Below, in pieces: positions 19,505-35,501 of a DNA stretch of 64,000 bases. Numbering within the stretch: position 1 is the first letter of the stretch; every line of letters begins with the position of its first letter. The position numbers and the translations under genes were made by a program. Below the pieces are notes generated by a model. That model made no database searches and had not been told where the DNA came from. It saw nothing but the letters and a program-made list of their open reading frames with translations. Source of the stretch: Cohnella thermotolerans DSM 17683 (GTDB lineage Bacteria > Bacillota > Bacilli > Paenibacillales > Paenibacillaceae); contig NZ_AUCP01000006.1 in the NCBI RefSeq assembly GCF_000429825.1, positions 62,001 through 126,000 of the forward strand, given 5' to 3'.

Positions 19505-21226
19505 TTATTTCACGCTCCAGTTGTCCATCCGGTACTTCAATTGCTCGTTGATGCGGTCCTCGTAAGCCTTGACGTCGACCTTGCCGATTTGCTTCACATA
19601 TTCGTCCCAGACGCTGTCGAACTCCTCCGGCTTGGACAGGATCGCTTTCGGCAAATATTTGACGCCAAGATCCTCCAGCTTCGTGGAAGCGATCTTCGCC
19701 GGCGAGCCGTCGATCAGGTCGATGCTCCACGCCGGGTAAGAGATCCGGTTTTCCGGCGCCGGCGAGAAGAAGTCGGAGGGCAGCTTCACGCCGTAAGCCG
19801 AGAACAGCTCCTTGTCGATGTCCTTCAACGTCGCGAAATACTCATCCGGTTGGCTTCCCGCGTCGGTAGCGTTGCCGTCGCTGTATTGGCCTTCGATTTT
19901 CGGAACATAAGTGAGGAACGACGAAGCCCGGTTCGCTTGCTTCCAGGTGACGTCCTCCTGCTGATTCCGCATCTCGGGCGTCCGGTAGAACTTGCCTTTG
20001 TCGTCCACCAGGTAGTCCTCGCCCTCGATTCCCCAATTGAGCACCTTCGACCACTTTTCGTCGAGCAGCGTATCGAGGAACTTGAGAATGCGGACCGGAT
20101 CCTTGGCGTCGACCGAGATGCCGAACCCGTTCTGCAGGTTCAAAGCCGGCCGGTCCAAGTAATAGTCTCTGATGGTGTCGTCGTAGACGAGCGGGATGCC
20201 CAGGTACGTCCGTTCGAACTTCTGCTGGGTGACGAGCGAATCTTCGCCTTGTTGGAAGTTCCAGTGCTGGTCGAACATGCCGAGCACGCGGCCGCTGGAG
20301 ATTTTGGCCAAATACTGATCGTAGTTTTGGGCGAAAGCTTCCTTGTCGATGATGCCCTTGGCGTTCTCTTCGTTCAGCTTCTTGTAGTACTTCTTGGCGA
20401 TCTCTTTGTCGGCGAAAATTTGCGCGGTATTCGTCTTGGGATCGACGACGACCCCGCCGTCGTTCGGATACCCGGCCAGATGCTCCGGCGCGTTCAGCAG
20501 CGGGAACTTCCGCCAGTCGTAGGCGAGGGTGGTGAACCCGATCGTCGGCTGTCCGTCGATCTCCGGATGTTTGGCCTTATACTGCTCGATGAGGTTGAAA
20601 TAGTCGTCCAGCGTCTTAAGCTTCGGATAGCCGAACTCCTTCAGTACCCCCTTCTGAATCCAGAAGGCCGGTCCGGAATAATAGGTGGAGACGTAATTGC
20701 CCTGATAGACCCCGTAATTCGGCAGCCAGTAGATGTGTCCGTCGGACGGGTCCTTCATCATGTTCCACACTTTCTCGTAGTGCTTCTTGATATTCGGCGC
20801 ATATTGCTCGATCAGGTCCTCCAGCGGAATGACCGCCTTGGCGGCCGTCAGCTTCGGCGACGCCGTGATGAGGTCCGGATAATCGCCGCCGGCGATCATG
20901 ACGCCGAGCTTCTGCTCCAGGTCGCCGACGAGGTATTCTTCCTTGAGCGTAACGCCGAGCTCGTCTCTGATTTTCTTGTAAATCTTGTTGTTCTCCGTCG
21001 GAATCGGACCCGAGGCGCCGTAGAACACCGAAATTGTAAACGGTTCCGTTTTTGCGTTGCCCGAAGCTCCGGCGGAAGCCGATGCGCCGGCCGATCCGCC
21101 GGTCGTTCCCGACGCCGACGGGCTCGCTTCCCCGTTTCCTTTTCCCGAACAACCCGCCAGCAGCAGGCCGAACGCAAATACCGCGCTCAAGCCTGCGAGA
21201 GCCGATCGCTTGACATGAACCCCCAT
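19505..21226 (-). CDS. Extracellular solute-binding lipoprotein, LplA-type
   Basis: A 573-residue lipoprotein. The signal peptide ends in the lipobox LLAGC (Cys ~26), followed by a Ser/Gly/Ala linker and a large family 1 binding-protein domain (EPFTISVFYGASG, YPDLITASPKLT, YWLPNYGVYQGNYVSTYY). The ~550-residue mature size and the C-terminal KQIGKVDVKAYEDRINEQLKYR are typical of LplA-like proteins that bind oligosaccharides. AAGGAGGGAA precedes the ATG at 21226. It follows the response regulator by 87 bp, and a small hairpin (21254-21271) sits in this gap. The system probably serves a plant or host glycan; the ligand is not determinable. Confidence 0.93.
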   Translation of the reverse strand: MGVHVKRSALAGLSAVFAFGLLLAGCSGKGNGEASPSASGTTGGSAGASASAGASGNAKTEPFTISVFYGASGPIPTENNKIYKKIRDELGVTLKEEYLVGDLEQKLGVMIAGGDYPDLITASPKLTAAKAVIPLEDLIEQYAPNIKKHYEKVWNMMKDPSDGHIYWLPNYGVYQGNYVSTYYSGPAFWIQKGVLKEFGYPKLKTLDDYFNLIEQYKAKHPEIDGQPTIGFTTLAYDWRKFPLLNAPEHLAGYPNDGGVVVDPKTNTAQIFADKEIAKKYYKKLNEENAKGIIDKEAFAQNYDQYLAKISSGRVLGMFDQHWNFQQGEDSLVTQQKFERTYLGIPLVYDDTIRDYYLDRPALNLQNGFGISVDAKDPVRILKFLDTLLDEKWSKVLNWGIEGEDYLVDDKGKFYRTPEMRNQQEDVTWKQANRASSFLTYVPKIEGQYSDGNATDAGSQPDEYFATLKDIDKELFSAYGVKLPSDFFSPAPENRISYPAWSIDLIDGSPAKIASTKLEDLGVKYLPKAILSKPEEFDSVWDEYVKQIGKVDVKAYEDRINEQLKYRMDNWSVK

Positions 21227-21313
21227 CCCATTCCCTCCTTAGGCAATTGCGGAACCGGGCCGACGCCCGGTATTCGATCCGCTCCTTTTTTATTATCCGG
21301 TTCCTGAATGCGG

Positions 21314-22888
21314 TTACAATGAACGGATTTCAGGTTCATCCCCCTCATTTTGCGAATCGGCCGCGAGCGAAGTCGGCTTCGCCCCGCAGCGCTTCTCGAA
21401 CTGCTTCAGGAAGTGGTTGTAATGGGCGTAGCCGACGCTTTCCGCGATGTCCGCCATTTTCCGTCCGGGGTCCTCCCGAATCAGCCGGAGCGCTTCGGCA
21501 ATCCGCAGGTCGTGCACGCGCTCGAGCACGCTCTTCCCGTAACGCGCCTGGTAAGCTTGACCCAGGTAGGCCGCGTTGAGGAAAAACGTTTCCGCAAGCC
21601 CCTTCACGCTGATCGGTTCCCGGAAATGCTCGCGAATGTACCGGTCGGCCGCTTGCAGCGGATGCGCCCCGCGAAGCGCCCTCGCTTCCGCCATCGCCTC
21701 CGCGGCGGCTTCGGCGAAGCGCTCGAGCGCCGCGAAGCTGCCGTCCAGGCTGGGGAGCGCTCCCTGGCCGGAGGTGAAGCTCTCCCATTCGCGCAGCCGC
21801 TCGGCCGGATCGATGCCCGCTTGCTGCAAGACCAGCGCGCTGCGGTAGAGGAGATGGTCGAGAAACGCGGCGACGGAGGACGGGCTCTGCCGTCCGTCGC
21901 GGAGCGTCTCTCGCAGCTGCGCGGCTTCCGCCCGAAGCCGCGCGCCGTCGCCCCATTCGAGCGCTTCGAGAAACGGGCGCCCGTCGGCAAGTCCTAAGCC
22001 TGCCGCCGCGGACGGCGCAGGCTCCTTTTCCGCGTACCGGACCGCGTCCCGTGCGCGATCGAAATAGAAGGCCTGCAGCACGGCCAGGGCGGACGCGTAC
22101 GAGTGCCGTATCGTCCGCAGATCCCGCTGCGGAAGACCGACGGCCAACCGGTAAGCGGAGTGCGCCTCCGGCCGGTCCAGGGTCTCCCGGATCGCGTTCA
22201 CGAACGCTTCCGCCCCAGCGAAGCAGGACGTCCCGCACACCGCCGCCGCCGGACCGAACCCGGCATCGGCCGGCACGTAGGCGTGGCCGTGCCGGCGCGC
22301 GGCTTCGCGAACCGCCCGTCCGGCATCGTCCGGCTGCTCGGCCTCGAGCAGCAGAACGCGCCACTCCTCGCATTGGCGGGACAACGCCTCGAGGTCGTCG
22401 TCCCAAACGGCGTCCTCCGCGTCTTCCCCATCCGCTTCGAGCAGACGGGATAGCGCCGCGGCAAGCCGCTCTCTGTCCCGAAGCGCGCGCAGCGAATCGG
22501 CCGCGCGCGCCGCATCCAGCTTGCTTCGGATGTCGGCCAACACATACGCGGCTTCTTCCGGAACGATAGGCTTCAGCAAGTAATGGGCCACTCCTTGACG
22601 AAGCGCGCTCCTCGCGTACTCGAACTCGCCGTACCCGCTCAAGACGACAAAGTGAACCCGCCGTCCGTACCGGCTTTGCGCGAGCTCGATGAGTTGAAGC
22701 CCGTCAACGGCGGGCATGCGGATGTCGGTCACGACGACATCCGGCCCGAGGCGGCCGATCGCCTCGAGCGCCTCTTCGCCGTCTTCGCAGGCGCCGCATA
22801 TCTCGAAGCCGTGCGCCTCCCAATCGACGAACAGCTTGAGCGCGTCGATCGCGAACGGCTCGTCGTCCACCAGCAACGCCTTGTACAT
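21314..22888 (-). CDS. YesN-type response regulator, AraC output (second of two)
   Basis: 524 residues: REC domain 1-120 with Asp8/Asp9 and phosphorylation site Asp55 (VVVTDIRMPAVDG) and Lys in LLKPI; a long linker domain; and an AraC-type double helix-turn-helix in the last ~100 residues (ISVKGLAETFFLNAAYLGQ ... MADIAESVGYAHYNHFLKQFEK). Its start overlaps the end region of the sensor kinase at 22890 (start one base apart from the stop). It follows that kinase and precedes the LplABC-like transporter, which is the position of the regulator that normally drives the transporter. GC content and Ala/Arg usage are higher than in its partner at 24689. Confidence 0.93.
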   Translation of the reverse strand: MYKALLVDDEPFAIDALKLFVDWEAHGFEICGACEDGEEALEAIGRLGPDVVVTDIRMPAVDGLQLIELAQSRYGRRVHFVVLSGYGEFEYARSALRQGVAHYLLKPIVPEEAAYVLADIRSKLDAARAADSLRALRDRERLAAALSRLLEADGEDAEDAVWDDDLEALSRQCEEWRVLLLEAEQPDDAGRAVREAARRHGHAYVPADAGFGPAAAVCGTSCFAGAEAFVNAIRETLDRPEAHSAYRLAVGLPQRDLRTIRHSYASALAVLQAFYFDRARDAVRYAEKEPAPSAAAGLGLADGRPFLEALEWGDGARLRAEAAQLRETLRDGRQSPSSVAAFLDHLLYRSALVLQQAGIDPAERLREWESFTSGQGALPSLDGSFAALERFAEAAAEAMAEARALRGAHPLQAADRYIREHFREPISVKGLAETFFLNAAYLGQAYQARYGKSVLERVHDLRIAEALRLIREDPGRKMADIAESVGYAHYNHFLKQFEKRCGAKPTSLAADSQNEGDEPEIRSL

Positions 22889-22889
22889 G

Positions 22890-24692
22890 TCAGACGGCTC
22901 CTTTCTCTTGCGAATCGGATTTCAACGGGATCCGGAACACCGCTTTCGTGCCGACATCCGGCAAGCTCTCGATCCGGAAGTCGACCCTGTCGTCGTAATA
23001 AAGCCGAAGACGCTGGTAGACGTTGCGCAGCCCGATGCTCGCTCCGTCCCCCCGCTTCTCCCGCATCTGCTCCGTGATCGCGTCCAACTGCTCCGGGCTC
23101 ATGCCGATACCGTTGTCCTGCACCTCGACGATCAAATACGCGGACGAGAGCCGCGCTCCGACCCGGATGCCGCGTTGCCCCTTGACCGCTTGCAAGCCGT
23201 GCTTGCACGCATTCTCGACGAGCGTCTGCACGCACATTTTCGGCACCGGCACCTGCTTCGCTTCCTCCTCGGCCTCGATCGCGTAGTCGAACCGGTCGGC
23301 GAACCGGAACTTCTCGATCTGCAAGTACATCTCCGTAAAATGCAGCTCTTCCCGCAACGGGACGAGGTCCTCCGACCAATTGATCATTCGCCTCAGCAAT
23401 AGCGACAGGTTCCGGATGATCTCCGCCACGTCCGCGTACTTGTTCTTGGCGCTTACGACAAGCAGCGCGTTCAGCGTGTTGAACAGGAAATGCGGGTTCA
23501 TCTGGCTCTGCAGCAAGTTCATTTCCGCCCGAACCCGCTCCAGCTCCAGGTCTTTCTTCTGTAACTCCAATTCGTACACGTCGTGAATGAGGGAATGGAT
23601 CTTGGCCGTCATCAGGTTAAAGTTGTGGATGAGCCCGCCGATCTCGTCCTTCCCTTCGGGGGAAGCGATCAGGTCGAACTTTCCGTTCTTCACCTTGGTC
23701 ATATGGCGCAGCAGCCGCTTGATCCGTTGGTTGTAGGAGCGGAGAATGACGACGATGAGCGCCGTCGGCACAAACGTGCTGACGATGCCGAGCTGCCAAA
23801 TGAATTTGCGCGATTTGAGCACCGCCTCGGATATTTGGCTTTTGTCTGTCGTCCCAACGAGCTTCCAGCCGGCCAAATATTCGTCTTCCCCCAGCGGTTC
23901 TTCGAGAAGGAGCATGTCTTTCTCGGCCTCCCCGCCGTCGAAGCGGACGAAGTCCGGATTTCGCGTATCTTCCTCTTGCGACGAAGAGAAGATGATTCTT
24001 CCGTCGGGATCGACCAGCTTGAGGTTCAAGTCCGGCCTGCCCTGATTCATCAGTTCGCTCAGCCTGCTCGTATTCAGATCGATTTTTAAAATCTTCAAAT
24101 ACTTGCCATAGATCGAAAAATCGTTCATCGTGCGGAGAATGCTGAAATACGTTTTTTGGCTTCTGGAGTTGAGCGGCTCCTTGTCCCGGTAAACGTACAA
24201 GGTGATTTTGCCCGGATTGGAGAGCGTGCGGAGATACCAGCCGGTCTTCTCGTCTTGCTCCTCCAGACGAAAATAGTTCCCCCCGCTCTCGATCGTATCG
24301 TTGTTCGTATAGATGCCGATCGTGTCCACGGACGTGTAAGCCGACAGGAAGGGGACCATCTTGCTTTTCAACCCGGCGTTGTAAGTCTCGTAGAAATCGA
24401 CCGAATCGGCATAGTCCTTATCCAGCGGTTCGTAGAACGTACGGTCGGACGAAATCGAATGGCTGAGCGTCACTCCGCCGATGATGATGTCGTACACCGT
24501 CTTGACGGCACGGTCCATCGACGTCTGCAAGTTTCTCTCCTCGCGGGCCTGAACGCTCTTTGACACCTGCTCGTAAAAAAGAACGTTAATCGTGATAATC
24601 GGCAGCAAAACGCACAGCAGGTAGATGAGCGTGAATTTGTAGTTGAGCGAAATATCGTTTATGATTCCGAAAAGCCGGAACGGACGTCTCAT
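22890..24692 (-). CDS. YesM-type sensor histidine kinase
   Basis: A 600-residue membrane kinase. Helix 1 is at ~15-38 (FTLIYLLCVLLPIITINVLFY), then a ~260-residue extracellular Cache-like sensor, helix 2, HAMP, a coiled coil, and the His_kinase domain with LQSQMNPHFLFNTLNALL (phospho-accepting His), plus HATPase (VQDNGIGM, GASIGLRNVYQRL). I place the start at ATG 24692, which overlaps the stop of the upstream response regulator as ATGA and has AGGGGTGG in front; upstream codons belong to a shadow frame. It probably senses the sugar or loaded binding protein and phosphorylates one or both flanking regulators. Confidence 0.93.
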   Translation of the reverse strand: MRRPFRLFGIINDISLNYKFTLIYLLCVLLPIITINVLFYEQVSKSVQAREERNLQTSMDRAVKTVYDIIIGGVTLSHSISSDRTFYEPLDKDYADSVDFYETYNAGLKSKMVPFLSAYTSVDTIGIYTNNDTIESGGNYFRLEEQDEKTGWYLRTLSNPGKITLYVYRDKEPLNSRSQKTYFSILRTMNDFSIYGKYLKILKIDLNTSRLSELMNQGRPDLNLKLVDPDGRIIFSSSQEEDTRNPDFVRFDGGEAEKDMLLLEEPLGEDEYLAGWKLVGTTDKSQISEAVLKSRKFIWQLGIVSTFVPTALIVVILRSYNQRIKRLLRHMTKVKNGKFDLIASPEGKDEIGGLIHNFNLMTAKIHSLIHDVYELELQKKDLELERVRAEMNLLQSQMNPHFLFNTLNALLVVSAKNKYADVAEIIRNLSLLLRRMINWSEDLVPLREELHFTEMYLQIEKFRFADRFDYAIEAEEEAKQVPVPKMCVQTLVENACKHGLQAVKGQRGIRVGARLSSAYLIVEVQDNGIGMSPEQLDAITEQMREKRGDGASIGLRNVYQRLRLYYDDRVDFRIESLPDVGTKAVFRIPLKSDSQEKGAV

Positions 24693-26218
24693 CGGTTTGG
24701 CCACCCCCTGCGGCCCGGCGGATTCCGGTAGGCGGAAGGCGTCATTCCGGTCCGTTCCTTGAAATGGCGGACGAAATCCTCGGCATCGCCGTATCCGACG
24801 GTTCGGGCAACTTCCGCGATTTTCATCTCGGTCCGCCGAAGCAGCGTCTTCGCCGATTCGACGCGGTACGTATGTACGAATTGATGAAACGTCTCCCCCG
24901 TCGCCTTCTTGAACAGCTGCCCCAAGTAAGCCGGCTGCGCGCCGAGCGCGGCGGCGACATCCTGAAGCTTGAGCGGCTTGCGGAATTGTTCTTGGACGAT
25001 TCGGATGGCCTCCGCGACGGCGGACCGGCGGCGATCGAACCGTTCGGCGGCCAGCCGGCCGTACCGGCATAGCCTGGCGCGCAGCTCCCGAACGCCCGCC
25101 GCTTGCGAGGAACCGACGGAACGCGGTCCCGGCAAATCTCCAGGCTGTTCGAAGGGGCCGTATCGCCGGTTCACCTCGACGGTCAGATCCGCGATGAACG
25201 CCCGGATGACGGACGGACCGGCCCCATTCGCGCGCATTCGTTCGAGCGCCTCGTCGAGCGCGGCTGCCATTCCGTCCGCATCGCCGGCTTCGATCAGCCG
25301 GAACAGCCTAGCGCCGGCTTCGGGATCGGGAATCGGAACGCGATATAGAGCCGAGGACGGGCATTGTGGCGCCATGAGGATGCCTTGGGCGATCTCGATG
25401 CCTGCGAAGGGCCGGTTGTCGCGAAGATGGGCCGCCTCTCGGTGAAGCGCTTTCAATCGCTCCGGTCCCTGACCCCAGCGGCTGACAAAAAGCCAGACGT
25501 CATCGCCTGTTTGATTCGCAAGCCGGCTGTGAAGATCGGACAGCACCGAGGCAAACCGCTCCGGCTTGCCGACGATAACCGCTCCAATGCCGCCTGAGCC
25601 GTCGTCGAAGAGCCGAACTCGGCCAGCTGCTTCCTCTTCCTCCAGGACGAAGGCGGTTCCAGCGTTTCCGTTTCCCTTCTCCGCCAAAACGACGCAGACG
25701 TCCGTGTCCTCCTCCATTCCCAGCATGGCCGAGGCACGCCGGCGCAGCTCCGGGTCGTCTTCTCCGCGGACAAGCAAGGCCAACGCCGCGGCGGCGGCTT
25801 CCTTCCGCTCCAGCGCCGCATCCTGCTCCTCCGCTCTCTCCCGTTCGAGCTCGATCCGCAGCTTCGCAAGAACGCGATCGAATTCGAAAGTGTCGATCGG
25901 CTTGAGCAAATAATCGGCCGCCTCGTGCCTCATGACGCTTTGGACGTACTCAAATTCGCCGTACCCGCTCAGCAAAATGAATTTGGCAGGGCAGTCGGCG
26001 CGCATCCGCGCCTGCCGGATCAGCTCAATCCCATCCATGACCGGCATGCGGATGTCGGTCACGACCAGATCGGGCCGGCAATCCAAGATCGCTGCGAACG
26101 CGTCCTCGCCGTCCCTCGCCTCGCCGCAAACCTCGAACCCTCGGGCCTTCCAATCGACCAGGAGTCTCAGCCCTTCAAGCACCAGCGGTTCATCGTCGAC
26201 CAGAAATACCTTGTACAA
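24689..26218 (-). CDS. YesN-type response regulator, AraC output (first of two)
   Basis: 509 residues: REC with Asp55 (LVVTDIRMPVMDG) and LLKPIDTFEF, a ~270-residue linker, and a C-terminal AraC domain (LKLQDVAAALGAQPAYLGQLFKKATGE ... KIAEVARTVGYGDAEDFVRHFKERTG). First gene of the operon behind promoter 26293-26321 and a cre site. The next gene, the YesM-type kinase, starts inside its stop codon. A second YesN-type regulator follows the kinase, so two DNA-binding outputs share one sensor. It has 509 residues against 524 for the other and clearly different sequence, so this is not a recent tandem duplicate. Confidence 0.93.
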   Translation of the reverse strand: MYKVFLVDDEPLVLEGLRLLVDWKARGFEVCGEARDGEDAFAAILDCRPDLVVTDIRMPVMDGIELIRQARMRADCPAKFILLSGYGEFEYVQSVMRHEAADYLLKPIDTFEFDRVLAKLRIELERERAEEQDAALERKEAAAAALALLVRGEDDPELRRRASAMLGMEEDTDVCVVLAEKGNGNAGTAFVLEEEEAAGRVRLFDDGSGGIGAVIVGKPERFASVLSDLHSRLANQTGDDVWLFVSRWGQGPERLKALHREAAHLRDNRPFAGIEIAQGILMAPQCPSSALYRVPIPDPEAGARLFRLIEAGDADGMAAALDEALERMRANGAGPSVIRAFIADLTVEVNRRYGPFEQPGDLPGPRSVGSSQAAGVRELRARLCRYGRLAAERFDRRRSAVAEAIRIVQEQFRKPLKLQDVAAALGAQPAYLGQLFKKATGETFHQFVHTYRVESAKTLLRRTEMKIAEVARTVGYGDAEDFVRHFKERTGMTPSAYRNPPGRRGWPNR

Positions 26219-26456: not shown

Positions 26457-28556
26457 TTAGCGCTTGACTTTCAATTCGATCAAGCGCGCGGTTTTCTTCC
26501 GCGGGAGCGTGACCTTCAACTGTCCGGAAGAGGCGTGCCAGACGACGCGGCTGTCGCTTTCGCTCGGGTAGGCGATGCGAACCTCCGCGTCCGCGCCGGC
26601 CAGCTGCGGGATCGGCAAGACCGCTTCCGCGGATGGTCCGCCGAGCCGCCAAACGGCGACGTAAGCGCGGTCTCCGTGGCGAAGCCCGAAGCTGATCCAG
26701 TCGTCCTGCGCCGTCGGCAGGCCGAGCGGCCAGAAGGGCAGCGACTGGGCGATGTCCCCGCGAATCGTCTTGTAGTAGTCCAGCGCCTCCTTGACCAGCG
26801 CCCGCCGCCGCGGGCTGAGCTCGGCCAGATGGCCGCTCTGGTGAATGCGAAGCAGCATGGCGTTCACCATGTTGAAGACGACTTCCTCGTCGTCGCCTTC
26901 GCGCAGCGGATACGACCAGATCGCCGATTGCTCCGGCGTCAGCGCCGACGGCGAGCTCGCGGCGATCGCCGCGTACTTGACGTAATCCTCCTGGTCGCTG
27001 GTGGACTGAATGCTGTGCCGGCTCAGCATCGCATAGTCCATCCGCATGCCGCCGCTGGAGCAGTTCTCGATGACGAGATCCGGATATTTGGCGAAAATCG
27101 AGTCGAGCCAAGCGAGATACGCGCGGTTGTGCTGCAGCAGACCGTCCCCGAAGCTGTCGGCGTTCGTCTCGGTGCCGATGCCCGCGTTGATGTTGTAGTC
27201 CATCTTGATATAGCCTACGCCGTAGTCTTCGACCAATCGGCGAATGACCTCGTTCGCGTGCGCGACGACTTCCGGGTTCCGGTAATCGAGCTGGTAGCGG
27301 CTGCGGTCTTTGACCCGCTTCCCATGGCGCATAAAGAACCAGCCGTCGTTCGTCTCGGCAAGCTTCGGGCTCCGGATGCCCATGACCTCGAGCTCCAGCC
27401 AGAGGCCGGGAATCATGCCCTTGCCGCGGATGTAGTCCAGCACATATTTAATGCCTTCCGGGAACCGTTCGGAAGAAGGCAGCCATTCGCCGACCCCGTC
27501 CCACCATTCTCCGGAGGCGTACCAGCCGGCGTCGATGCAGAAGTATTCGCAGCCGATCTCCGCCGCCGCGTCGATAAGCGGGATTAGCTTCGCGGTCGTC
27601 GGGCTGCCCCACAGGCAATTCATATAATCGTTGAAAATGACCCGAAGCAGCCGGTTGTCGTCGTTCGGGCGGCGTATGGCGCGGCGGTACGTCGTGAGCT
27701 GGGCGATCGCCTGCTCGAAGCCGCCTTTGACCGCGCCTACGGCCGCCGGAACGGTCGCAAACTCCTCGCCCGGACGAAGCTGCTTCCACCAGTGGTTGTC
27801 ATGCTCCGTCGGACCGCTGACGAGCAGCGTAAGGAAATTGAACTGATCGATGATTTCCCAATGCCAGGAGCCGTTGTGCTCGATTTGCCAGACGAGCGCC
27901 GTTCCCGCTTCCTTGTTTTCCAGCACCGCCATCGGAATATGCTCCGCGGCCGACCAGGAGCCGGTGTTGCTGCAGGAGATCCGCTTGGAGCTGCGGTCGG
28001 TCATATGCGACAAGCCCAGCTCGGGCAGCGTGTACGTCCGCCATTGCAGCTCGCTTTGCCAGCCGGAGTGCGGAATCGACACGGCGATCTTCGCGTCGCG
28101 GTCGAGCTCGCCTTCCTTGTCCAGCCCGGTCAGCGCGAAGGTGGAGACGTATTCGACGCCGACCGGCTCGCTTCCCGCGTTCTTGAGAACGGTCCAGCAG
28201 CGAACGACGGACACGCCTTCGTAGAACTGGATATGCGAAGTCGACTCCAGCTTCGTCTCCGGGTCGACGAGCGCAATCTCCAGCTTGCGGCCGATCTCGT
28301 TGCGGGAATCGTTGTGCGACTTGTATCGCATGCGCAAGCCCGGGAACGTGGCCCGGTGCGTTCGCCCGTGATACTCCGCCCGATCCTCGCCCGTTAACTG
28401 CAGCTCCAGAAGGCGGAAGCCCTCCTCCTGCTTCTCGGCCACCAGCTCGGGCCGGAACGGCTCCGGCCCGAAGTGCAGCAAGCGGACGTCTAGCGAATCG
28501 GTCACTTTCAAAACGAGATGCAGGCCGTTCTCCGTAATCTCGATCCATTTGCTCAT
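26457..28556 (-). CDS. Alpha-galactosidase, glycoside hydrolase family 36
   Basis: Releases terminal alpha-galactose from raffinose-type sugars or galactomannan fragments. The 699-residue length fits GH36. N-terminal beta-sandwich (HFGPEPFRPELV, RMRYKSHNDSRNEIGRKLEI), then a TIM barrel with FCIDAGWY, the nucleophile Asp453 in YIKMDYN and the acid/base Asp507 in CSSGGMRMDY, and a C-terminal beta domain. There is no signal peptide, so it acts on imported sugars. The frame opens earlier (28670), but ATG 28556 has GGAGGGTG in front. It follows the solute-binding protein gene by 132 bp, with a hairpin between them, so it probably belongs to that transcript at a lower level. Retaining mechanism follows from the family. 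Confidence 0.94.
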   Translation of the reverse strand: MSKWIEITENGLHLVLKVTDSLDVRLLHFGPEPFRPELVAEKQEEGFRLLELQLTGEDRAEYHGRTHRATFPGLRMRYKSHNDSRNEIGRKLEIALVDPETKLESTSHIQFYEGVSVVRCWTVLKNAGSEPVGVEYVSTFALTGLDKEGELDRDAKIAVSIPHSGWQSELQWRTYTLPELGLSHMTDRSSKRISCSNTGSWSAAEHIPMAVLENKEAGTALVWQIEHNGSWHWEIIDQFNFLTLLVSGPTEHDNHWWKQLRPGEEFATVPAAVGAVKGGFEQAIAQLTTYRRAIRRPNDDNRLLRVIFNDYMNCLWGSPTTAKLIPLIDAAAEIGCEYFCIDAGWYASGEWWDGVGEWLPSSERFPEGIKYVLDYIRGKGMIPGLWLELEVMGIRSPKLAETNDGWFFMRHGKRVKDRSRYQLDYRNPEVVAHANEVIRRLVEDYGVGYIKMDYNINAGIGTETNADSFGDGLLQHNRAYLAWLDSIFAKYPDLVIENCSSGGMRMDYAMLSRHSIQSTSDQEDYVKYAAIAASSPSALTPEQSAIWSYPLREGDDEEVVFNMVNAMLLRIHQSGHLAELSPRRRALVKEALDYYKTIRGDIAQSLPFWPLGLPTAQDDWISFGLRHGDRAYVAVWRLGGPSAEAVLPIPQLAGADAEVRIAYPSESDSRVVWHASSGQLKVTLPRKKTARLIELKVKR

Positions 28557-28636
28557 CGCAACAGCACCCTCCGTCGATCCAATTGAGCGCGACGCCGCAA
28601 TATAACCCGATCGTTGCGTTGCACGCCTAAACGCAA

Positions 28637-28662
28637 ACTCAGCGCCTTTCAAGGCGCTGAGT
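28637..28662 (-). terminator. Hairpin between solute-binding protein and alpha-galactosidase
   Basis: ACTCAGCGCC (28637-28646) pairs perfectly with GGCGCTGAGT (28653-28662). On the minus strand TTTGCGTTT follows. It is either a leaky terminator that sets the ratio of binding protein to enzyme or an mRNA-stabilising 3' hairpin. Confidence 0.7.
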
Positions 28663-28688
28663 CCAACCAAGCGTATTCCTTATTCCCT

Positions 28689-30020
28689 TTATTGGGCCGA
28701 GCCCAATTGCTGCCAGGCTTGCTCGATTTGGGAGATCGCGTCGTCCTTCTTCAGGTTGCCGCCGATGTAAGCCTGCATGATCTCGCCGAACTTCTGATGG
28801 AACGTGTCAAGCGAGTAGTTGATGGACAGATCGCCGGATTTCTCCGTCTTGAGGATCTCATTCATTTGCTTCGGCATGTCAAGGTTCGGCAGCGGAGCGT
28901 CCTTGATCGGAGGAATCACCTTCGCGATGTTGGAGAACCACTGCTTGCCGTAGTCGGACGTGTACAGCCAGTTGAAGAACGCGATCACTTCCTTGACGTT
29001 CTTCGAGTCCTTGTTGATGCGCAGCGCTTGGTCGGCGCCGGTGATGATTTGGGACTGTTCCGGCTTGTCGCTGACCGGGTAGCCCATGATGCCGATCTGA
29101 ATATCCGGGTTGATCTTCTTGATCGCTTCTTCGTCCCAAGCCCCCTTGCCGGTCATGATCGCGGCTTTGCCGGAAGCGAAGTCGCTCACTTCAGCGTTGC
29201 TGTCGCGTTCAAGCGGCTTGTCCGTGCCGTGCTTGACGGTCGTGTCGATGAAGTTGAAGAAGTTGTTGTAGAGAATCGGATGGTCTTTGAACGTCGTTTT
29301 GCCGGCGATGAAGTCGGCCACGAGCGTCTTGGCGTCGGTTCCTGCATCCGTCGCCGCCGCGTCGACGAAGTGCTGGAAGATGTGCTTCCATACCCACCAC
29401 TCTTTGTACGCGTTCGCGAACGGCGTAATGCCTTTCGCTTCGAGCTTGGCGATGGCGTCGTCCAATTGCGCCGTCGTCTTCGGCACCTCGGTGATGCCCG
29501 CTTCTTCGAACAGCTTCTTGTTGTAGATCAGGGCGAACAGGTTGCCCTTGACCGGAAGGCCGAGCACCTTGCCGTCGGAAGACGTCATGTTGGAGCGGAC
29601 GGCGTCGGTCATCGCGGCCGCCAGCGGTTCGTTCGTCAGGTCCGCGCTGTATTCGGCGAACGTGTCGATGTCGCCGCCGGCCGTCGTCTGGAACACGTCC
29701 GGTATGTTGCCCGACGCGATGCGGGATTTCAGGACCGTGTTATAGTCCGACTGCATGATCTCCAGGTTGATCGTGACGTTCGGCTTCACCTTTTTGTATT
29801 CGGCGATGTAAGCGTTGAACGCATCGGTGTATTCCGGAGAAGCGGTAAACATATTGATCGTGACCGGTTTGGAAGAATCGGCGCCGCCCGAAGCCGATGC
29901 GGATGCGGCCGGAGATTCGCCGCCTGCCGCGTTGTTGTTGTCGCTGCTGCTGCCGCAAGCCGCCAACGCGCCGGCCATCAGGACCATACTGGCCGAAAGT
30001 GCCGTAACTCTCTTTAACAT
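28689..30020 (-). CDS. Extracellular sugar-binding lipoprotein of the alpha-galactoside module
   Basis: A 443-residue family 1 solute-binding protein. The signal peptide MLKRVTALSASMVLMAG ends in the lipobox ALAAC, followed by an Asn/Ser/Ala linker and the mature domain (VTINMFTASPEYTDAF, IPDVFQTTAGGDIDTFAEY, LPVKGNLFALIYNKKLFEEAGI). It resembles MsmE/raffinose-binding proteins. I chose ATG 30020 over the earlier ATG at 30038 because it starts the signal peptide. The gene faces away from its presumed permeases at 33784 and 34671, with the YesN/YesM pair between them, but its promoter has the same operator at the same spacing as the permease promoter. Ligand: probably an alpha-galactoside, inferred from the following GH36 gene. 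Confidence 0.92.
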   Translation of the reverse strand: MLKRVTALSASMVLMAGALAACGSSSDNNNAAGGESPAASASASGGADSSKPVTINMFTASPEYTDAFNAYIAEYKKVKPNVTINLEIMQSDYNTVLKSRIASGNIPDVFQTTAGGDIDTFAEYSADLTNEPLAAAMTDAVRSNMTSSDGKVLGLPVKGNLFALIYNKKLFEEAGITEVPKTTAQLDDAIAKLEAKGITPFANAYKEWWVWKHIFQHFVDAAATDAGTDAKTLVADFIAGKTTFKDHPILYNNFFNFIDTTVKHGTDKPLERDSNAEVSDFASGKAAIMTGKGAWDEEAIKKINPDIQIGIMGYPVSDKPEQSQIITGADQALRINKDSKNVKEVIAFFNWLYTSDYGKQWFSNIAKVIPPIKDAPLPNLDMPKQMNEILKTEKSGDLSINYSLDTFHQKFGEIMQAYIGGNLKKDDAISQIEQAWQQLGSAQ

Positions 30021-30065
30021 AGATTCGCCCCCACTCACAGGTGTTGATTTTGGATTTCGTAGCCT

Positions 30066-30121
30066 ATTCTAAAGAAATCGGTTGTCGATAAAAATGTAGA
30101 TAAGTGACCACTTGAGGGTAA
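30066..30121 (-). promoter_or_regulatory. Promoter and activator site of the sugar-binding protein gene
   Basis: On the minus strand TTACCCTCAAGTG begins a 21-nt element (30121-30101), followed by CATTTTTA (weak -35 TTTTTA, 30094-30089), 17 nt, and -10 TAGAAT (30071-30066). Element, -35 and -10 have the same offsets as in the permease promoter at 33642-33697. Confidence 0.75.
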
Positions 30122-30149
30122 AAAAGTGTAGTCCTCGTCCAGTTCACTT

Positions 30150-31790
30150 TTATCCATCCGATCGCTTCATCCGGTATTCGGAGGGCGAGATCGAGAAATA
30201 ATTCCGGAACGCCTTGCTGAAGTAATTTTTGTCCTTGTAGCCGAGCATCTCGGAGATTTCCTGAATTTTGAGGTCCGATTCGCCCAGCAGCTCCTTCGCC
30301 TTTTCCATCCGGATTTTCTGCACGTATTCATGAATGCCGCAGCCGTACTGCTGCTTGAACAGCTTCATCAAATATTCCCGGCTCAGAAAATATTTCTCCG
30401 TGAACATCGAAATTTTGATGTCCTCGAAATAATGCTGGTCGATGTAATCTTTGATTTCGCTGATGTCGAACGAACGATCGGTGCTCGCGGCGCTGCGGAT
30501 CTGGTAAGCGTAATAATCGGCGATCCGGCACAGAAGCGCCTCGTACTCGTCGAACCGGACGAAGTCGGACCCGATGCCGATCGCCTTCAAGCCCTCTGCG
30601 CCGCCCGTCGCCAGTTTATGCGAAGGAACGCCGAATTCCAGCGCCATATCGCCGAGGAGAATGAGGAACTCGTGCAAGATGCGGCTGGCGTCCTTCAAGC
30701 TGAAGCTGTCCAGGCTGCGAATTTTCTTCGTAAAATCGAGCACGATGCTTCGCACCTGATTCGCGTTGCCGGCCTCGATCGCGCTGCGAATCAGAGGAAG
30801 GCGGCTGGCGATCGTCGGGCTCTCCTTCGCGCTCGAGGGATCGGGCCGCCGGTCGGACACCGCCACGTCCCGCAGCTTTAGCAGATCGATCTCGTTTGCG
30901 GCCGTCTCCGCATATTCGTAGGAAGCCGCCAGCTTCGACACGTCGGGGTCGGACGTTCCGACGCCCGCTACGGAGATAATCCCGAACAGGTCCTTCAAGG
31001 CGCCGACGACCTTCTTCACGAAATGAATCGACCTTAGCGCAATGTCTTCCGGATAGCCGCCGGAGATCGTCTGAATGACGACGACTTCCCGCTCCCGCTT
31101 GGGATGGGCAAAGCCGAAGCTCTTGAAGCCCTCCTCCGCAAATTCGTTAATGACGTTGGACACGGCAAAAAGAAGAAGGTCCGTCTCCCCGTTGAAGCGC
31201 GCTTCCGTCACCTGCTCCAGGTTGAGCATCCGCACGACTGCGGCGCCGAACCGCTTGCCCGGATCGTCCGCGCCGATGAGCCGGAGGAACGCCTCGTTAT
31301 TTTTAACCTTGAAATTGCGTTCGATCATCGAGAGATAAATATTTTCCTTGAGCTTCGGCACCGACATATTGAGCGTTATGTTGCGGTTGATGAACTCGCT
31401 CTCGCTTTCCTTCCGGGCCCGCAGCACGTCGATCGCCTTGCGGAGCGCTTGGTTCAGGTCCTGCCGGTTCACCGGCTTCAGCAAGTAATCGACGACCTTG
31501 GAGCGAATGGCCTGTCTCGTATATTCAAAATCGTTATAGCCGCTGATGACGATCGTAAACAGATTCGGATAATCTCTCTCCACATGCTGAAGAAACGCCA
31601 TCCCGTCCATCTCGGGCATCTTCATGTCCACGAGCACGAGATCGGGTTTGCGCTCTTGCAGCAGCGCCAGGCCGGTTCTCCCGTCCCCGGCTTCCATCAC
31701 TTCTTCCACACCGAGACCTTCCCAGTCTCCCAATATGCGAATCGCCTCGCGCGACGGTTCTTCGTCGTCGATAATCAGAACTTTATACAT
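30150..31790 (-). CDS. YesN-type response regulator of the alpha-galactoside module
   Basis: 546 residues: REC domain with Asp8/Asp9 and phospho-acceptor Asp55 (LVLVDMKMPEMDG), LLKPVNRQDLN, a long middle region, and an AraC-type DNA-binding domain at the C-terminus (ISMFTEKYFLSREYLMKLFKQQYG ... IQEISEMLGYKDKNYFSKAFRNYF). Its start overlaps the end of the kinase gene by 8 bp. It lies between the kinase and the sugar-binding protein gene. The direct-repeat elements before both transporter transcripts (30101-30134 and 33629-33662) are its probable binding sites, as an activator just upstream of poor -35 boxes. Confidence 0.94.
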   Translation of the reverse strand: MYKVLIIDDEEPSREAIRILGDWEGLGVEEVMEAGDGRTGLALLQERKPDLVLVDMKMPEMDGMAFLQHVERDYPNLFTIVISGYNDFEYTRQAIRSKVVDYLLKPVNRQDLNQALRKAIDVLRARKESESEFINRNITLNMSVPKLKENIYLSMIERNFKVKNNEAFLRLIGADDPGKRFGAAVVRMLNLEQVTEARFNGETDLLLFAVSNVINEFAEEGFKSFGFAHPKREREVVVIQTISGGYPEDIALRSIHFVKKVVGALKDLFGIISVAGVGTSDPDVSKLAASYEYAETAANEIDLLKLRDVAVSDRRPDPSSAKESPTIASRLPLIRSAIEAGNANQVRSIVLDFTKKIRSLDSFSLKDASRILHEFLILLGDMALEFGVPSHKLATGGAEGLKAIGIGSDFVRFDEYEALLCRIADYYAYQIRSAASTDRSFDISEIKDYIDQHYFEDIKISMFTEKYFLSREYLMKLFKQQYGCGIHEYVQKIRMEKAKELLGESDLKIQEISEMLGYKDKNYFSKAFRNYFSISPSEYRMKRSDG

Positions 31791-33600
31791 GGCTGCCTCC
31801 CCGCGGAATCATCATGCGCATCTCCGTTCCGGTCTCGTCCGTCGATATCGCAAGCCCCGCCTCTTCTCCGAAAATGAGTTGGAGTCTCGCGTTCAAGTTT
31901 TTGAGACCGATATTGTCCCCCTCGCGATCCTCCCATTCCGTCCGGAACGATTGCAGAATCTCCTTCAGCTTCTCCGGAGGAATGCCCGGCCCGTCGTCCT
32001 TCACGGAGATGACCGCGTGCGCCGGTTCGAGGTGGATGCCGATGACGATCGTGATCGTGCTGGAGACTTTCTCCAGCGCATGCTTGATGGAGTTCTCCAC
32101 CAGCGACTGGATGGACAACTTGGGGATGGCGAGGTCCATCAGCGATTCGTCGAAATCGTAGACGACCTGCAGCCGGTTCCCGAATCGGGCTTTTTGCAGC
32201 GCCAAATATCGTTCGATATGTTTTATTTCTTCTTTAGCATGCACGATGTCTTTGCCGCTTATGCAATATCTTAGCGTCAGTGCCAGCGCGTCCACCATGT
32301 CGGCAATATCGTCCATTCCGTTCTTGAGCGCCTTCGTCGAAATGGCCTGAAGCGCGTTGTAGAGGAAGTGGGGATTGATCTCCGCCTCCAGCGCCTTCAG
32401 AATGGCGCTTTTCTCGACCAGCTTCATTTTGTAGCGCTCGTTGATCAGCTCGTTCGTCCGCTTGACCATCAAGTTGAAATGCTTGGACAAATACGCGATC
32501 TCGTCCCTCCCCTTCACCTCGGTCTCCGCGTCGAACATCCCCTTGCTGAAGCGGCTCATCTGGAGCGACAGCCGCTTGAGCGGCCGCGTGATGGCGTTCG
32601 AGGTCAACGTCACGAGCACAACGGACAGCGCCAGAAAGCCCAACCCGATGAGGATGCTGATCCGGCGGGCCGTCTGGGCCGTGCGGTTGATCTCGCTGTA
32701 CGGAATCGGTTTGACGAGCTTCCAGCCGTCTCCTTCGCTTACGTTGTACACAACCAAATACCGCTTATCCCCTTCCGTCCAAGAGAAACGGTCGCGTCCC
32801 CCGCCCTGATCGAGCCGGTCGAAAAAGCCGGAAGAACGGACGTTCCGGTAAAAATTCACATCGTCCAAATGGAAAGGCACATTGTTCGAATCGAGGAAGA
32901 GCAGATGCTCCCCCTTGTTGAACGGGATGTCCCGGATGATGTCGTTTTTGCCGCTGTCGTTAAAATAAAAGCTCAGCACCGCCCTCGGCCTGCGGTCGGC
33001 GAGGGAGCGCAGCACCCGGTGATACGCCATGAAGCTGTCGCCCGTCCCGGTCGGATACCCCGTCTCCGTCGGAAAAACGAGCGACTGGATCGAGCGGTTC
33101 TTGTCGCTCTCCATCGCCTGCTTGTACCACGACTGCTGCGGAATGGTCGCGTCGGTTCCCGCCCGCACCGTCGCGTTATAGCGCTCGCGCGCGATGTAGA
33201 TGTATTTGTGCTCGTCGACCAGATACAAGTAAATTTGCTCCAAATCGTGGCGCGAGTAGTACAAACTTCTCAGATAGTCTTCCAAATACAAGCGCGAAGC
33301 GTAATCGGTCTCGACGTGGTTGATGGCGTTGATGATGTCGTCGTATTTGATTTGCGGCAGCGACAGCTGCTCGATCTCCGCGAAGTAGTTCTCGAAGTTC
33401 TTGTTGACAAGCATCAGGTTGTTCGAGTTGCTGGCGATGCTATGATCGACCGATTCCTTCTCGATGATCATGTAGGAAATGACCGTGAGCGACGCCACCA
33501 CCAGAATGATAATGGACGTGAAGAGTAAAATAAGTTTGTTTACCAGCCTGCGGGTCGCGAAGTTCCCCAGCTTCCGCACCGTTTTCCGGAACCAGTCCAT
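31783..33600 (-). CDS. YesM-type sensor histidine kinase of the alpha-galactoside module
   Basis: 605 residues: membrane helix ~17-40 (KLILLFTSIIILVVASLTVISYMII), extracellular Cache-like sensor region to ~290, second helix (ISILIGLGFLALSVVLVTL), HAMP (RPLKRLSLQMSRFSKGMFD), and kinase core with LEAEINPHFLYNALQAIS (phospho-accepting His) and HATPase motifs VKDDGPGI and GDNIGLKNLNARL. ATG 33600 is the natural start (MDWFRKTVRKLG). It is cotranscribed with the response regulator (8-bp overlap) and divergent from the permease genes. It probably reads extracellular alpha-galactoside, directly or through the binding protein. Confidence 0.94.
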   Translation of the reverse strand: MDWFRKTVRKLGNFATRRLVNKLILLFTSIIILVVASLTVISYMIIEKESVDHSIASNSNNLMLVNKNFENYFAEIEQLSLPQIKYDDIINAINHVETDYASRLYLEDYLRSLYYSRHDLEQIYLYLVDEHKYIYIARERYNATVRAGTDATIPQQSWYKQAMESDKNRSIQSLVFPTETGYPTGTGDSFMAYHRVLRSLADRRPRAVLSFYFNDSGKNDIIRDIPFNKGEHLLFLDSNNVPFHLDDVNFYRNVRSSGFFDRLDQGGGRDRFSWTEGDKRYLVVYNVSEGDGWKLVKPIPYSEINRTAQTARRISILIGLGFLALSVVLVTLTSNAITRPLKRLSLQMSRFSKGMFDAETEVKGRDEIAYLSKHFNLMVKRTNELINERYKMKLVEKSAILKALEAEINPHFLYNALQAISTKALKNGMDDIADMVDALALTLRYCISGKDIVHAKEEIKHIERYLALQKARFGNRLQVVYDFDESLMDLAIPKLSIQSLVENSIKHALEKVSSTITIVIGIHLEPAHAVISVKDDGPGIPPEKLKEILQSFRTEWEDREGDNIGLKNLNARLQLIFGEEAGLAISTDETGTEMRMMIPRGGSHV

Positions 33601-33628
33601 CCGTTCTCTCTTGCCCCCTTGCGCGGGT

Positions 33629-33697
33629 ACAGTTCACCTTATTACCCTTAACTGTTTACTTAAATCCATTTTTTCGGCCGAAATCGGTGTTTATAAT
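33629..33697 (+). promoter_or_regulatory. Promoter and activator sites of the permease operon
   Basis: Direct repeats ACAGTTCACCTTA (33629-33641) and ACTGTTTACTTA (33651-33662) are two helical turns apart. CATTTTTT (weak -35 TTTTTT, 33669-33674), 17 nt and -10 TATAAT (33692-33697) follow. The palindrome TTTCGGCCGAAA (33672-33683) overlaps the spacer. The layout is that of an activator-dependent promoter and matches the one before the binding-protein gene. Confidence 0.78.
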
Positions 33698-33783
33698 GCA
33701 ATATAGCCTAAACGCCTTGGGGATGTACAGCCGCCCCAAAGCGGCTTGCGAAAGTGAAGCGACATAAAAAAGAGGTGTGGGGT

Positions 33784-34671
33784 ATGAACAATTTGCGCAG
33801 AAGGCTGGGCGCCAGGGTGGAATTCGGGCTGTTCACGTTGCCGGTCCTCATTTGCGTCCTGGTGGCTTTCTATATTCCGTTCGTCCTGACCGTCCGGTAT
33901 TCCCTGACGAAGTGGAACGGGATCTCCAAGCATCCCAAATTTATCGGATTGGACAACTTCAAGCAAATTTTCATGGGCGACGCCAACTTCAGCCATGCGG
34001 CGTGGTTCACGGTCAAATACGCCGTGCTGTATATCGTCCTGATCAACGTGCTGGCCATCGTGCTCGCCGTTATTCTGGACATGAAGCTCAAGTCGAAAAC
34101 GTTCCTGCGGGCCGCGTTCTTCATTCCGTACATTTTGAGCCTGGTCATCGTAGGGTTCATCTGGAAGTTCATCTTCATGCAAGGCTTCGAGTCGCTCGGC
34201 AACAGCACGGGCTGGAGCTTCTTCGGCTGGAGCTGGCTAGGGAAGCCGGGTCTGGCGTTCATCTCGGTGCTCTTCGTCTCGATCTGGCAGTCCATCGGCT
34301 TCTATCTCGTCATCTATATCGCCGGCCTGCAATCGGTGCCGGACGATCTGAAGGAAGCGGCCGTCATGGACGGAGCCGGACCGTTCCGGCGATTCTTCAG
34401 CGTGACGCTCCCGCTGCTCGCGCCTTCTGTCACGATCGCCGTCTTCATGGCGCTGACGAACTCGATCAAAGTGTTCGACGTCATTCTGTCGCTGACCGGC
34501 GGCGGACCCGGCGGCACGACTTTCAGCGTCGCCTACGACGTTTACCGCGATACGTTCCAGAACAACCTGTACGGTTACGGGACGGCCAAGGCGCTCATTC
34601 TGTTCGTCGCCGTCCTGATTATCACCATTCTTCAATTGACTATCTTCAAACGCAGGGAGGTTGAGGGCTAA
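33784..34671 (+). CDS. Sugar ABC transporter permease (MalF class)
   Basis: A 295-residue permease with six membrane segments and the EAA loop DDLKEAAVMDGAGPFRRFFSVTLPLL. It has the compact MalF form of oligosaccharide importers (MsmF-like). ATG 33784 follows AGGTG; the frame opens earlier at 33754 without a site. Its stop and the next start overlap as TAATG. It is divergent from the kinase gene. I assign it to the sugar-binding protein at 28689 because no other binding protein lies in this block and the promoters match. Confidence 0.93.
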   Translation: MNNLRRRLGARVEFGLFTLPVLICVLVAFYIPFVLTVRYSLTKWNGISKHPKFIGLDNFKQIFMGDANFSHAAWFTVKYAVLYIVLINVLAIVLAVILDMKLKSKTFLRAAFFIPYILSLVIVGFIWKFIFMQGFESLGNSTGWSFFGWSWLGKPGLAFISVLFVSIWQSIGFYLVIYIAGLQSVPDDLKEAAVMDGAGPFRRFFSVTLPLLAPSVTIAVFMALTNSIKVFDVILSLTGGGPGGTTFSVAYDVYRDTFQNNLYGYGTAKALILFVAVLIITILQLTIFKRREVEG

Positions 34672-35501
34672 TGCGCGCCAACAAAGCCGGGATGGTCGTT
34701 CTGGAGATCGTGTTGATCCTGCTCGCCCTCCTGTTCCTGTATCCGTTGTTCCTGGCCATTTTCAACTCCTTCAAGAGCTTCCAGGAGGTCATGACCGACG
34801 TCATCGCCTTGCCGAAGCACTGGACGTTCGACAATTACTCGTACGTTTGGAAGTACATCAACTATCCGCGGCTGTTCCTGAACAACACGGTCATTACCGT
34901 TCTCGGTCTCGCGGGCATCATCCTCGTGTCCTCGATTGCGGCTTACAAGCTGTCGAGAACGAAGTCCCGCGCCAGCGCGATCGTTTACTTTATCTGCATC
35001 ATGCCGATGCTCATTCCGTTCCAGTCCATCATGCTGACCGTGCTCAAGACGGCGCGCTTCCTGCACCTGTCCGACAGCACCTGGGGACTCGGCCTGCTGT
35101 ACTGGGGCTTCGGCGCCCCGCTCGCCGTGTTCATCTATCACGGCTTCGTCAAGGGCATTCCGAAGGAGATCGACGAGAGCGCGATGATCGACGGCGCTTC
35201 CGGCTTCCGGCTGTTCTTCACCGTCATCTTCCCGCTGCTGAAGTCGGTTACGACGACGATCGTCATCATCGACGTCATGTGGATCTGGAACGACTTCCTG
35301 CTCCCGCTGCTCATGGTCAACGGCTCGCCGACGACCAAGACGCTGACGCTCGCGGCTTACACCTTCGTCGGCCAGTACACGTCCGACTGGCAATACGCGA
35401 TGACCGCCATGGTCATGGCCGTGCTGCCTTCGATCATCGTGTTCATCTTCCTGCAGAAGTACATCGTCAAAGGCGTCGTCGCCGGGGCCGTCAAAGGCTG
35501 A
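34671..35501 (+). CDS. Sugar ABC transporter permease (MalG class)
   Basis: A 276-residue permease, MsmG-like: six membrane segments, EAA loop PKEIDESAMIDGASGFRLFFTVIFPLL, and the family-typical C-terminus QKYIVKGVVAGAVKG. Start ATG 34671 overlaps the stop of the preceding permease, which implies translational coupling and equal stoichiometry. A strong terminator follows at 35519. No ATPase gene is present, so a shared MsmX-type ATPase is expected elsewhere. Confidence 0.93.
   Translation: MRANKAGMVVLEIVLILLALLFLYPLFLAIFNSFKSFQEVMTDVIALPKHWTFDNYSYVWKYINYPRLFLNNTVITVLGLAGIILVSSIAAYKLSRTKSRASAIVYFICIMPMLIPFQSIMLTVLKTARFLHLSDSTWGLGLLYWGFGAPLAVFIYHGFVKGIPKEIDESAMIDGASGFRLFFTVIFPLLKSVTTTIVIIDVMWIWNDFLLPLLMVNGSPTTKTLTLAAYTFVGQYTSDWQYAMTAMVMAVLPSIIVFIFLQKYIVKGVVAGAVKG

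What the first reader, a model, noticed from the sequence alone, without database searches (positions are those of the whole stretch)
30066..33697. Two distant transporter promoters share one activator site at identical spacing
Seen: a 21-nt element starting TTACCCTYAASTG lies at 30121-30101 (minus, before the sugar-binding protein) and 33642-33662 (plus, before the permeases). In both, CATTTTT begins 5 nt later and a -10 (TAGAAT/TATAAT) begins exactly 30 nt after the element, with a poor -35 (TTTTTA/TTTTTT) and a 17-nt spacer. The upstream half of the plus copy is a second direct repeat two helical turns away. Inference: this is the binding site of the YesN-type regulator at 30150, which holds the split alpha-galactoside importer together as one regulon.
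Basis: partly seen in the sequence, partly recalled or inferred. Interest (0 to 1): 0.7.

Follow-up and report, generated by a model that had tools for sequence, protein, structure and literature searches.

The report
Paired YesN operators of split sugar importer
Two promoters 3.5 kb apart, one for the sugar-catching protein and one for the membrane channel of the same importer, carry the same regulator-binding site, and relatives of this bacterium keep the pair with great precision; it is a well-supported example of an ordinary kind of bacterial gene switch.

Summary
The 21-mer is the core of a 44-bp tandem direct repeat (22-bp register) whose downstream half lies on the -35 position; the -10 starts 50 bp after the first T of TTACCC. 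Own genome (5.05 Mb, pattern search): the two sites plus one 3-mismatch hit inside fliD. Of 394 family genomes, 157 hold the extended motif, 142 of them exactly one copy per strand; the reversed-pattern control hit once. A YesN match (E<=1e-100) occurs in 162; 153 hold both. Of the four with motif only, two have a YesN with an insert and two have lost yesN. Where genes are rearranged or inserted, one site stays with the permease and the other with the binding protein. YesN is the only DNA-binding protein of this cassette, so a class II YesN operator is the best reading; binding is unproven. Additions: a conserved yesM promoter faces the permease promoter, and a strong hairpin separates the binding-protein gene from GH36. 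'Alpha-galactoside' is not established. New member of a known kind.

The parts
33631..33674 (+). Permease-side operator (P): tandem half-sites at about 33632-33649 and 33654-33671, 22-bp register
33669..33674 (+). Poor -35 (TTTTTT) at the end of the downstream half-site
33692..33697 (+). -10 TATAAT of the permease promoter; TATAAT at +50 in 21 and at +51 in 9 of 31 P rows
30089..30132 (-). Binding-protein-side operator (S): tandem half-sites at about 30131-30114 and 30109-30092, 22-bp register; -35 position TTTTTA at 30094-30089
30066..30071 (-). -10 TAGAAT of the binding-protein promoter; at +50 in 30 of 31 S rows (TAGAAT 25, TACAAT 4, TAAAAT 1)
30142..30151 (-). Inverted partial half-site AAAAGTGAAC, overlapping the yesN stop codon; AAAAGYGAA present in 24 of 31 S rows and 0 of 31 P rows
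   Evidence: as RNA it folds no better than shuffles
33700..33729 (-). Predicted yesM promoter TGTACA-18-TATATT, face to face with the permease promoter; its transcript would run through the P operator
30150..31790 (-). YesN-type response regulator (Response_reg + HTH_18), proposed binder
31783..33600 (-). YesM-type sensor kinase (HAMP, His_kinase, HATPase_c)
28689..30020 (-). Extracellular sugar-binding protein (SBP_bac_1), target of S
33784..34671 (+). ABC permease A (BPD_transp_1), target of P
34671..35501 (+). ABC permease B (BPD_transp_1), directly after permease A
26457..28556 (-). GH36 glycosidase gene downstream of the binding-protein gene
28637..28662 (-). Strong hairpin between the binding-protein stop and GH36 (possible partial terminator)

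Best explanation
Each element is an operator for the YesN response regulator encoded between the two promoters. Phosphorylated YesN is proposed to bind as a dimer to two direct-repeat half-sites in 22-bp register; the downstream half takes the place of the poor -35, so that RNA polymerase is recruited to a normal -10 (class II activation, as AraC-family activators do). Because the binding-protein operon and the permease operon each carry one such operator, the split importer is switched on as one unit. Shown here: the sites, their architecture, fixed spacing, conservation, number per genome, and co-inheritance with yesN. Inferred: binding, dependence on phosphorylation, activation.
For: Exact match and spacing of the two sites. 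Conserved block -10..+30 and -10 hexamer with a poorly conserved stretch between them in 31 P and 31 S rows; TTACCC in register in 60 of 62 rows. 22-bp register best of the offsets 17-35 in 38 non-redundant rows (8.71 of 17 identities; 27 of 2000 column shuffles reach it). 142 of 157 motif-bearing genomes hold exactly one copy per strand; reversed control 1 hit in 394 genomes. For the 72 complete pairs in the truncated listing: all 72 diverge, the YesN match starts between them in 71 of 71 with a listed YesN, median distance 3557 bp. YesN/motif table: both 153, motif only 4, YesN only 9, neither 228. Of the 4, G379 and G389 have a YesN with an insert, G385 and G084 have lost yesN. In a Clostridiaceae MAG (L026) with the permeases on the same strand as yesM, both sites are present (27.7 and 28.1 bits) with GATAAT and TAGAAT at +50. 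In G379 and G389, 5-6 kb of other genes separate yesN from the binding-protein gene and the S site stays beside the latter. HTH2 letters KDKN read SDNN, SNNH, SNSH in L026, L095, L096, and 5 of their 6 sites depart from TTACCC.
Against: No binding or expression data. Kinase, permeases and binding protein are inherited with yesN, so co-occurrence fits any factor tied to the cassette; the 394 genomes are related and overlap the loci from which the pattern was made, so the counts are not independent events. G385 keeps both sites and G084 one without yesN. Nine genomes have a YesN match without a motif match: the Thermobacillus one has sites beyond the mismatch limit (46.8 and 21.9 bits in L027); in three of the other eight that I scanned (L111, L112, L114) the two candidate places score only 13.1/11.1, 13.1/2.3 and 7.1/-6.0 bits. 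The 22-bp repeat is imperfect: 27 of 2000 shuffles match it, and a cruder log-odds test ranked other offsets above it.
Confidence: 0.85

Rival explanations
1. The element is the operator of another regulator (an AraC-family protein or a global carbon regulator encoded elsewhere), and yesN lies between the sites for other reasons.
For: Two genomes keep site(s) without yesN. Genomes hold many loosely related proteins (70 to 515 first-look YesN candidates per listed genome).
Against: A global regulator would leave more than two sites per genome. The site is found almost only where the YesN cassette is (153 of 157 directly, 155 counting the insert-bearing YesN). HTH2 letters and site letters change together in three divergent members.
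Confidence: 0.07
2. YesN binds the sites but acts mainly as a repressor: occupancy of the P site blocks the facing yesM promoter, and activation of the importer is secondary or absent.
For: A yesM promoter facing the permease promoter is conserved (8-10 of 12 hexamer matches in 29 of 31 rows, best fit over spacers).
Against: Both sites keep the same fixed distance to a -10 and lie on a poor -35, which fits activation; the S site lies before a gene on the same strand as yesN, without a divergent gene.
Confidence: 0.05
3. The sequences are conserved for another reason: an RNA element or promoter-only constraint.
For: The S copy contains a T6 run, and an upstream inverted repeat in 24 of 31 rows.
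Against: No Rfam match at E<=0.1 in 28400-34000; the S inverted repeat folds no better than shuffles in the window (z +0.88); conservation lies upstream of the -10, outside the expected transcript of the gene it precedes.
Confidence: 0.03

Closest known systems
Local two-component regulators of C. bescii sugar loci (PMC8579813, passages read)
   Same: Local TCS (AviRS, MosSQ) are predicted to activate their neighbouring CUT1 sugar transporters; for three of five TCS with AraC-type DNA-binding domains the sites are described as tandem repeats with large spacers upstream of the promoter, hence activators.
   Different: Different organism and regulators; the passages do not say which named TCS are of AraC type, and I did not see motif letters, so no sequence comparison was made.
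CuaDSR of Ruminiclostridium cellulolyticum (PMC5663094, passages read)
   Same: AraC/XylS-type response regulator switches on the ABC importer next to it; shown with a reporter in E. coli.
   Different: One regulated unit (cuaABC-cbpA) and a second binding protein for signalling; no operator sequence in the passages seen.
XydS/XydR of Clostridium cellulolyticum (PMC3572039, passages read)
   Same: AraC-type response regulator whose DNA-binding domain binds upstream of two loci; direct and inverted repeats and similarities on the predicted -35 boxes noted.
   Different: Regulates hemicellulase-type genes; no defined operator in the passages seen.
Pneumococcal RR07 / YesN (PMC11034029, passages read)
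   Same: YesN-type regulators with computed candidate motifs.
   Different: Motifs differ (CTWWWWWWAG for RR07; no clear repeat for YesN).
E. coli AraC at araI1-I2, RhaS (recalled, no call)
   Same: Two direct-repeat half-sites about two helical turns apart, the downstream one overlapping -35.
   Different: Sugar-binding regulators, not phosphorylated response regulators.

Membership tests
YesN-type (AraC-family) response regulator | N-terminal receiver domain | tested here: met
   PF00072 E 2.5e-24
YesN-type (AraC-family) response regulator | C-terminal helix-turn-helix region of AraC type | tested here: met
   PF12833 E 2.3e-21, PF00165 two stretches; 38 rows aligned
YesN-type (AraC-family) response regulator | Partner kinase of YesM type (HAMP, His_kinase, HATPase_c) | tested here: met
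   PF00672, PF06580, PF02518
Class II AraC-type operator | Two direct-repeat half-sites about two helical turns apart | tested here: met
   22-bp offset best by per-row identity; 27 of 2000 column shuffles reach it; a log-odds test did not rank it first
Class II AraC-type operator | Downstream half-site on a poor -35, fixed distance to -10 | tested here: met
   -10 at +50 in 30/31 S rows, +50 or +51 in 30/31 P rows
Class II AraC-type operator | Bound by the regulator and activates transcription | not testable with these tools
   needs footprint and reporter
Local two-promoter regulon | No further copies in the genome | tested here: met
   patterns only, no whole-genome matrix scan: 2 sites and one hit inside fliD; half-site scans add 2 hits (reversed control 9) and 3 hits (control 2) with 2 mismatches
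Alpha-galactoside importer | Substrate is an alpha-galactoside | tested here: inconclusive
   GH36 beside it in 24 of 32 loci; best NCBIfam model is beta-L-arabinopyranosidase, 529.6 bits against cut-off 1100, nearest solved relatives are alpha-galactosidases; GH76 instead in L026 and L095; nearest solved binding protein is named maltose-binding

The most novel reading that the evidence does not exclude
The P region is a self-limiting switch: the yesM-yesN promoter and the permease promoter face each other with -10 hexamers 2 bp apart in the window, and the yesM leader runs through the P operator. Phospho-YesN would fire the importer and shut off its own genes at the same stroke, while the S promoter, lacking the facing promoter but having a third, inverted half-site, gives a different dose of binding protein.
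Probability: 0.35. Interest if true: 0.5.

Novelty: new member of a known kind. Interest (0 to 1): 0.4.

Why it matters
Genomes of this family carry many YesN-like proteins (70 to 515 loose first-look candidates per listed genome), and the passages I read give few defined operators for such regulators. Here one operator is defined almost to the base, with one copy per strand in 142 of 157 bearers, natural losses and rearrangements as controls, and a hint of which HTH2 letters read it. That gives a test case for how many parallel YesN systems avoid cross-talk.

Tried and rejected
Rejected: the 3-mismatch genome hit at C39:19355 as a third target (inside a fliD gene). Rejected: the S inverted repeat as an RNA terminator in this genome. 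Rejected: an Rfam element. Not found: the same motif at the other YesN clusters of the window; none of the other top-six matrix places lies in 19505-26218, and no clear 20-23-bp repeat stands upstream of the gene at 19505-21226 or the YesN at 24689-26218. My first direct-repeat test (log-odds) did not place 22 bp first: offsets 39 and 38 (P) and 30 and 32 (S) scored higher; I rely on the per-row identity count. In one search I translated GH36 in the wrong frame; only, in the right frame, is used. Literature: paper searches (regulators; the enzyme) gave precedents but no paper on this operator that I noticed; that holds for those searches of the open library only, and most listed papers were seen as listings. 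Not done: a matrix scan of the whole genome; G177 and G209 were not looked up; L113, L115, L116 were not scanned.

The odds of the best reading went from 0.88 to 0.85 and of the second rival from 0.1 to 0.05 only so that the four readings sum to 1.
Full report
What is there. The window lies at G000:C4:62001-126000. The gene order is permease A and B on the plus strand, and on the minus strand yesM, yesN, binding protein and a GH36 gene.

The element. I aligned the window with 30 orthologous loci on each side (31 P rows, 31 S rows), taken from the 32 YesN orthologues L001-L032. Left out on the P side: L024 (its contig is short and no permease was found on it) and L026; on the S side: L026 and L027, because the first scan gave no hit there; the matrix scan later found sites in L026 (27.7 and 28.1 bits) and an S site in L027 (21.9 bits). 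The rows show a conserved block from about -10 to +30 (five-column means 0.6-2.0 bits), a poorly conserved stretch at +35 to +44 (0.2-0.5) and a conserved -10. TTACCC is in register in 60 of 62 rows; L027 P reads TTCCCC and in L022 S the word sits one base to the left. At +50 the S rows read TAGAAT (25), TACAAT (4), TAAAAT (1) and TAATAT (1); the P rows read TATAAT at +50 (21) or +51 (9), and L028 has neither. The half-site consensus lines (P left cAGTTCACcTTtTTACCCTTAAC, P right CTGtTt.CTTAAATCCATTTtg, S left gA.t.CACTTTTTTACCCTtAA, S right .tc.tCACtTATcTaCATTTtt) line up with a 22-bp register; 22 is the best of the offsets 17-35 over 38 non-redundant rows, and 27 of 2000 column shuffles do as well. 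A cruder log-odds test did not rank 22 first, so the repeat is degenerate.

How many and where. In the own genome the 21-mer with up to 3 mismatches occurs three times, the third inside a fliD gene; half-site patterns with up to 2 mismatches add two hits for the left half (reversed control nine) and three for the right half (control two). In 394 genomes of the family the extended pattern with up to 2 mismatches hits 157 genomes, 142 of them with exactly one copy on each strand and 15 with another count (fourteen with a single copy, G374 with two on one strand); the control pattern hits once. For the 72 complete pairs in the truncated listing all diverge, the distance is 3532-7521 bp (67 of 72 within 3500-3700), and the YesN match starts between them in 71 of 71 with a listed YesN. 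The pattern was made from loci that overlap these genomes, so this is a census, not an independent test; the reversed pattern is its control.

Link with YesN. A YesN match at E<=1e-100 is in 162 of the same genomes. Cross-table: both 153, motif only 4, YesN only 9, neither 228. Motif only: G379 and G389 carry YesN with an insert, so the match fell short of the cut-off; G385 has a yesM that matches only over residues 5-263 and no yesN at the locus or elsewhere at E<=1e-60, yet keeps both sites; in G084 a deletion joins yesM (residues 16-206) to the binding-protein gene (from residue 90), so yesN, the S site and the start of the binding protein are gone while P remains. YesN only: G392, the Thermobacillus locus (L027/L110), whose sites lie beyond the mismatch limit (46.8 and 21.9 bits), and eight genomes of one genus; six of these eight were looked up and match at 37-40% identity, and the three scanned show only weak site-like stretches (L111, L112, L114). 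Rearrangements separate the sites from yesN but not from their genes: in L026 the permeases lie on the same strand as yesM and still have a P-type site with GATAAT at +50, and in G379 and G389 about 5-6 kb of other genes lie between yesN and the S site, which stays beside the binding-protein gene. These results tie the sites to the importer genes of a cassette in which YesN is the only DNA-binding protein. In L026, L095 and L096 the HTH2 letters KDKN read SDNN, SNNH and SNSH, and 5 of their 6 sites no longer read TTACCC, while the equally distant L027 (KDKN) keeps TTACCC at S though not at P; L021 (RDKN) and L023 (KDNN) keep TTACCC. This is suggestive, from three loci only.

(a) A yesM promoter, TGTACA-18-TATATT at 33729-33700 minus, appears in the consensus scan (that scan as a whole found no more sites than shuffles, 4 against 3.3) and is supported by conservation: a facing -10 at +57..+60 in 27 of 31 P rows and 8-10 of 12 hexamer matches in 29 of 31 (best fit over several spacers, no shuffle control). 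It faces the permease promoter, and its leader would cross the P operator. (b) AAAAGYGAA, an inverted partial half-site, precedes S in 24 of 31 rows and P in none. (c) A strong hairpin separates the binding-protein gene from GH36 in the window (z -4.31), and a perfect stem of 8 or more pairs is there in 16 of 24 orthologues with a GH36 neighbour (no shuffle control), so GH36 may be only partly co-expressed.

Substrate. GH36 stands next to the binding protein in 24 of 32 loci (two of the eight others, L003 and L024, are short contigs); L026 and L095 have a GH76 gene instead. The name alpha-galactoside importer is possible but not shown.

Compared with what is known. Local two-component regulators that switch on neighbouring importers, some with AraC-type domains and tandem-repeat sites upstream of the promoter, are described in C. 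bescii (PMC8579813) and R. cellulolyticum (PMC5663094, PMC3572039); I read passages only. This is a new, very well conserved member of that kind.

Noticed in passing
28637-28662 (-): Strong hairpin between the binding-protein gene and GH36; 16 of 24 orthologues have a perfect stem of 8 or more pairs there, often with the core ACTCAGCRCC and a T-rich stretch after it.
   Followed up: partly
33700-33729 (-): Conserved yesM promoter facing the permease promoter, -10 hexamers 2 bp apart in the window.
   Followed up: partly
30142-30151 (-): Inverted partial half-site upstream of S in 24 of 31 rows; a possible third binding position.
   Followed up: partly
L128 (G385) and L099 (G084): Natural losses of yesN that leave permease genes and operator(s); in G084 the start of the binding protein is lost too.
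   Followed up: partly
L129, L130 (G379, G389), L098 (G023), L029: YesN orthologues with inserts that interrupt the alignment to the window's YesN.
   Followed up: no
L026:11293-15696 and L095:3-4433: GH76 domain protein gene beside the divergent binding protein (Pfam), hinting at alpha-mannan substrates there.
   Followed up: partly
19505-26218 (-): Two further YesN-type regulators, a YesM-type kinase and a 573-aa protein without a Pfam match; no shared operator found.
   Followed up: partly
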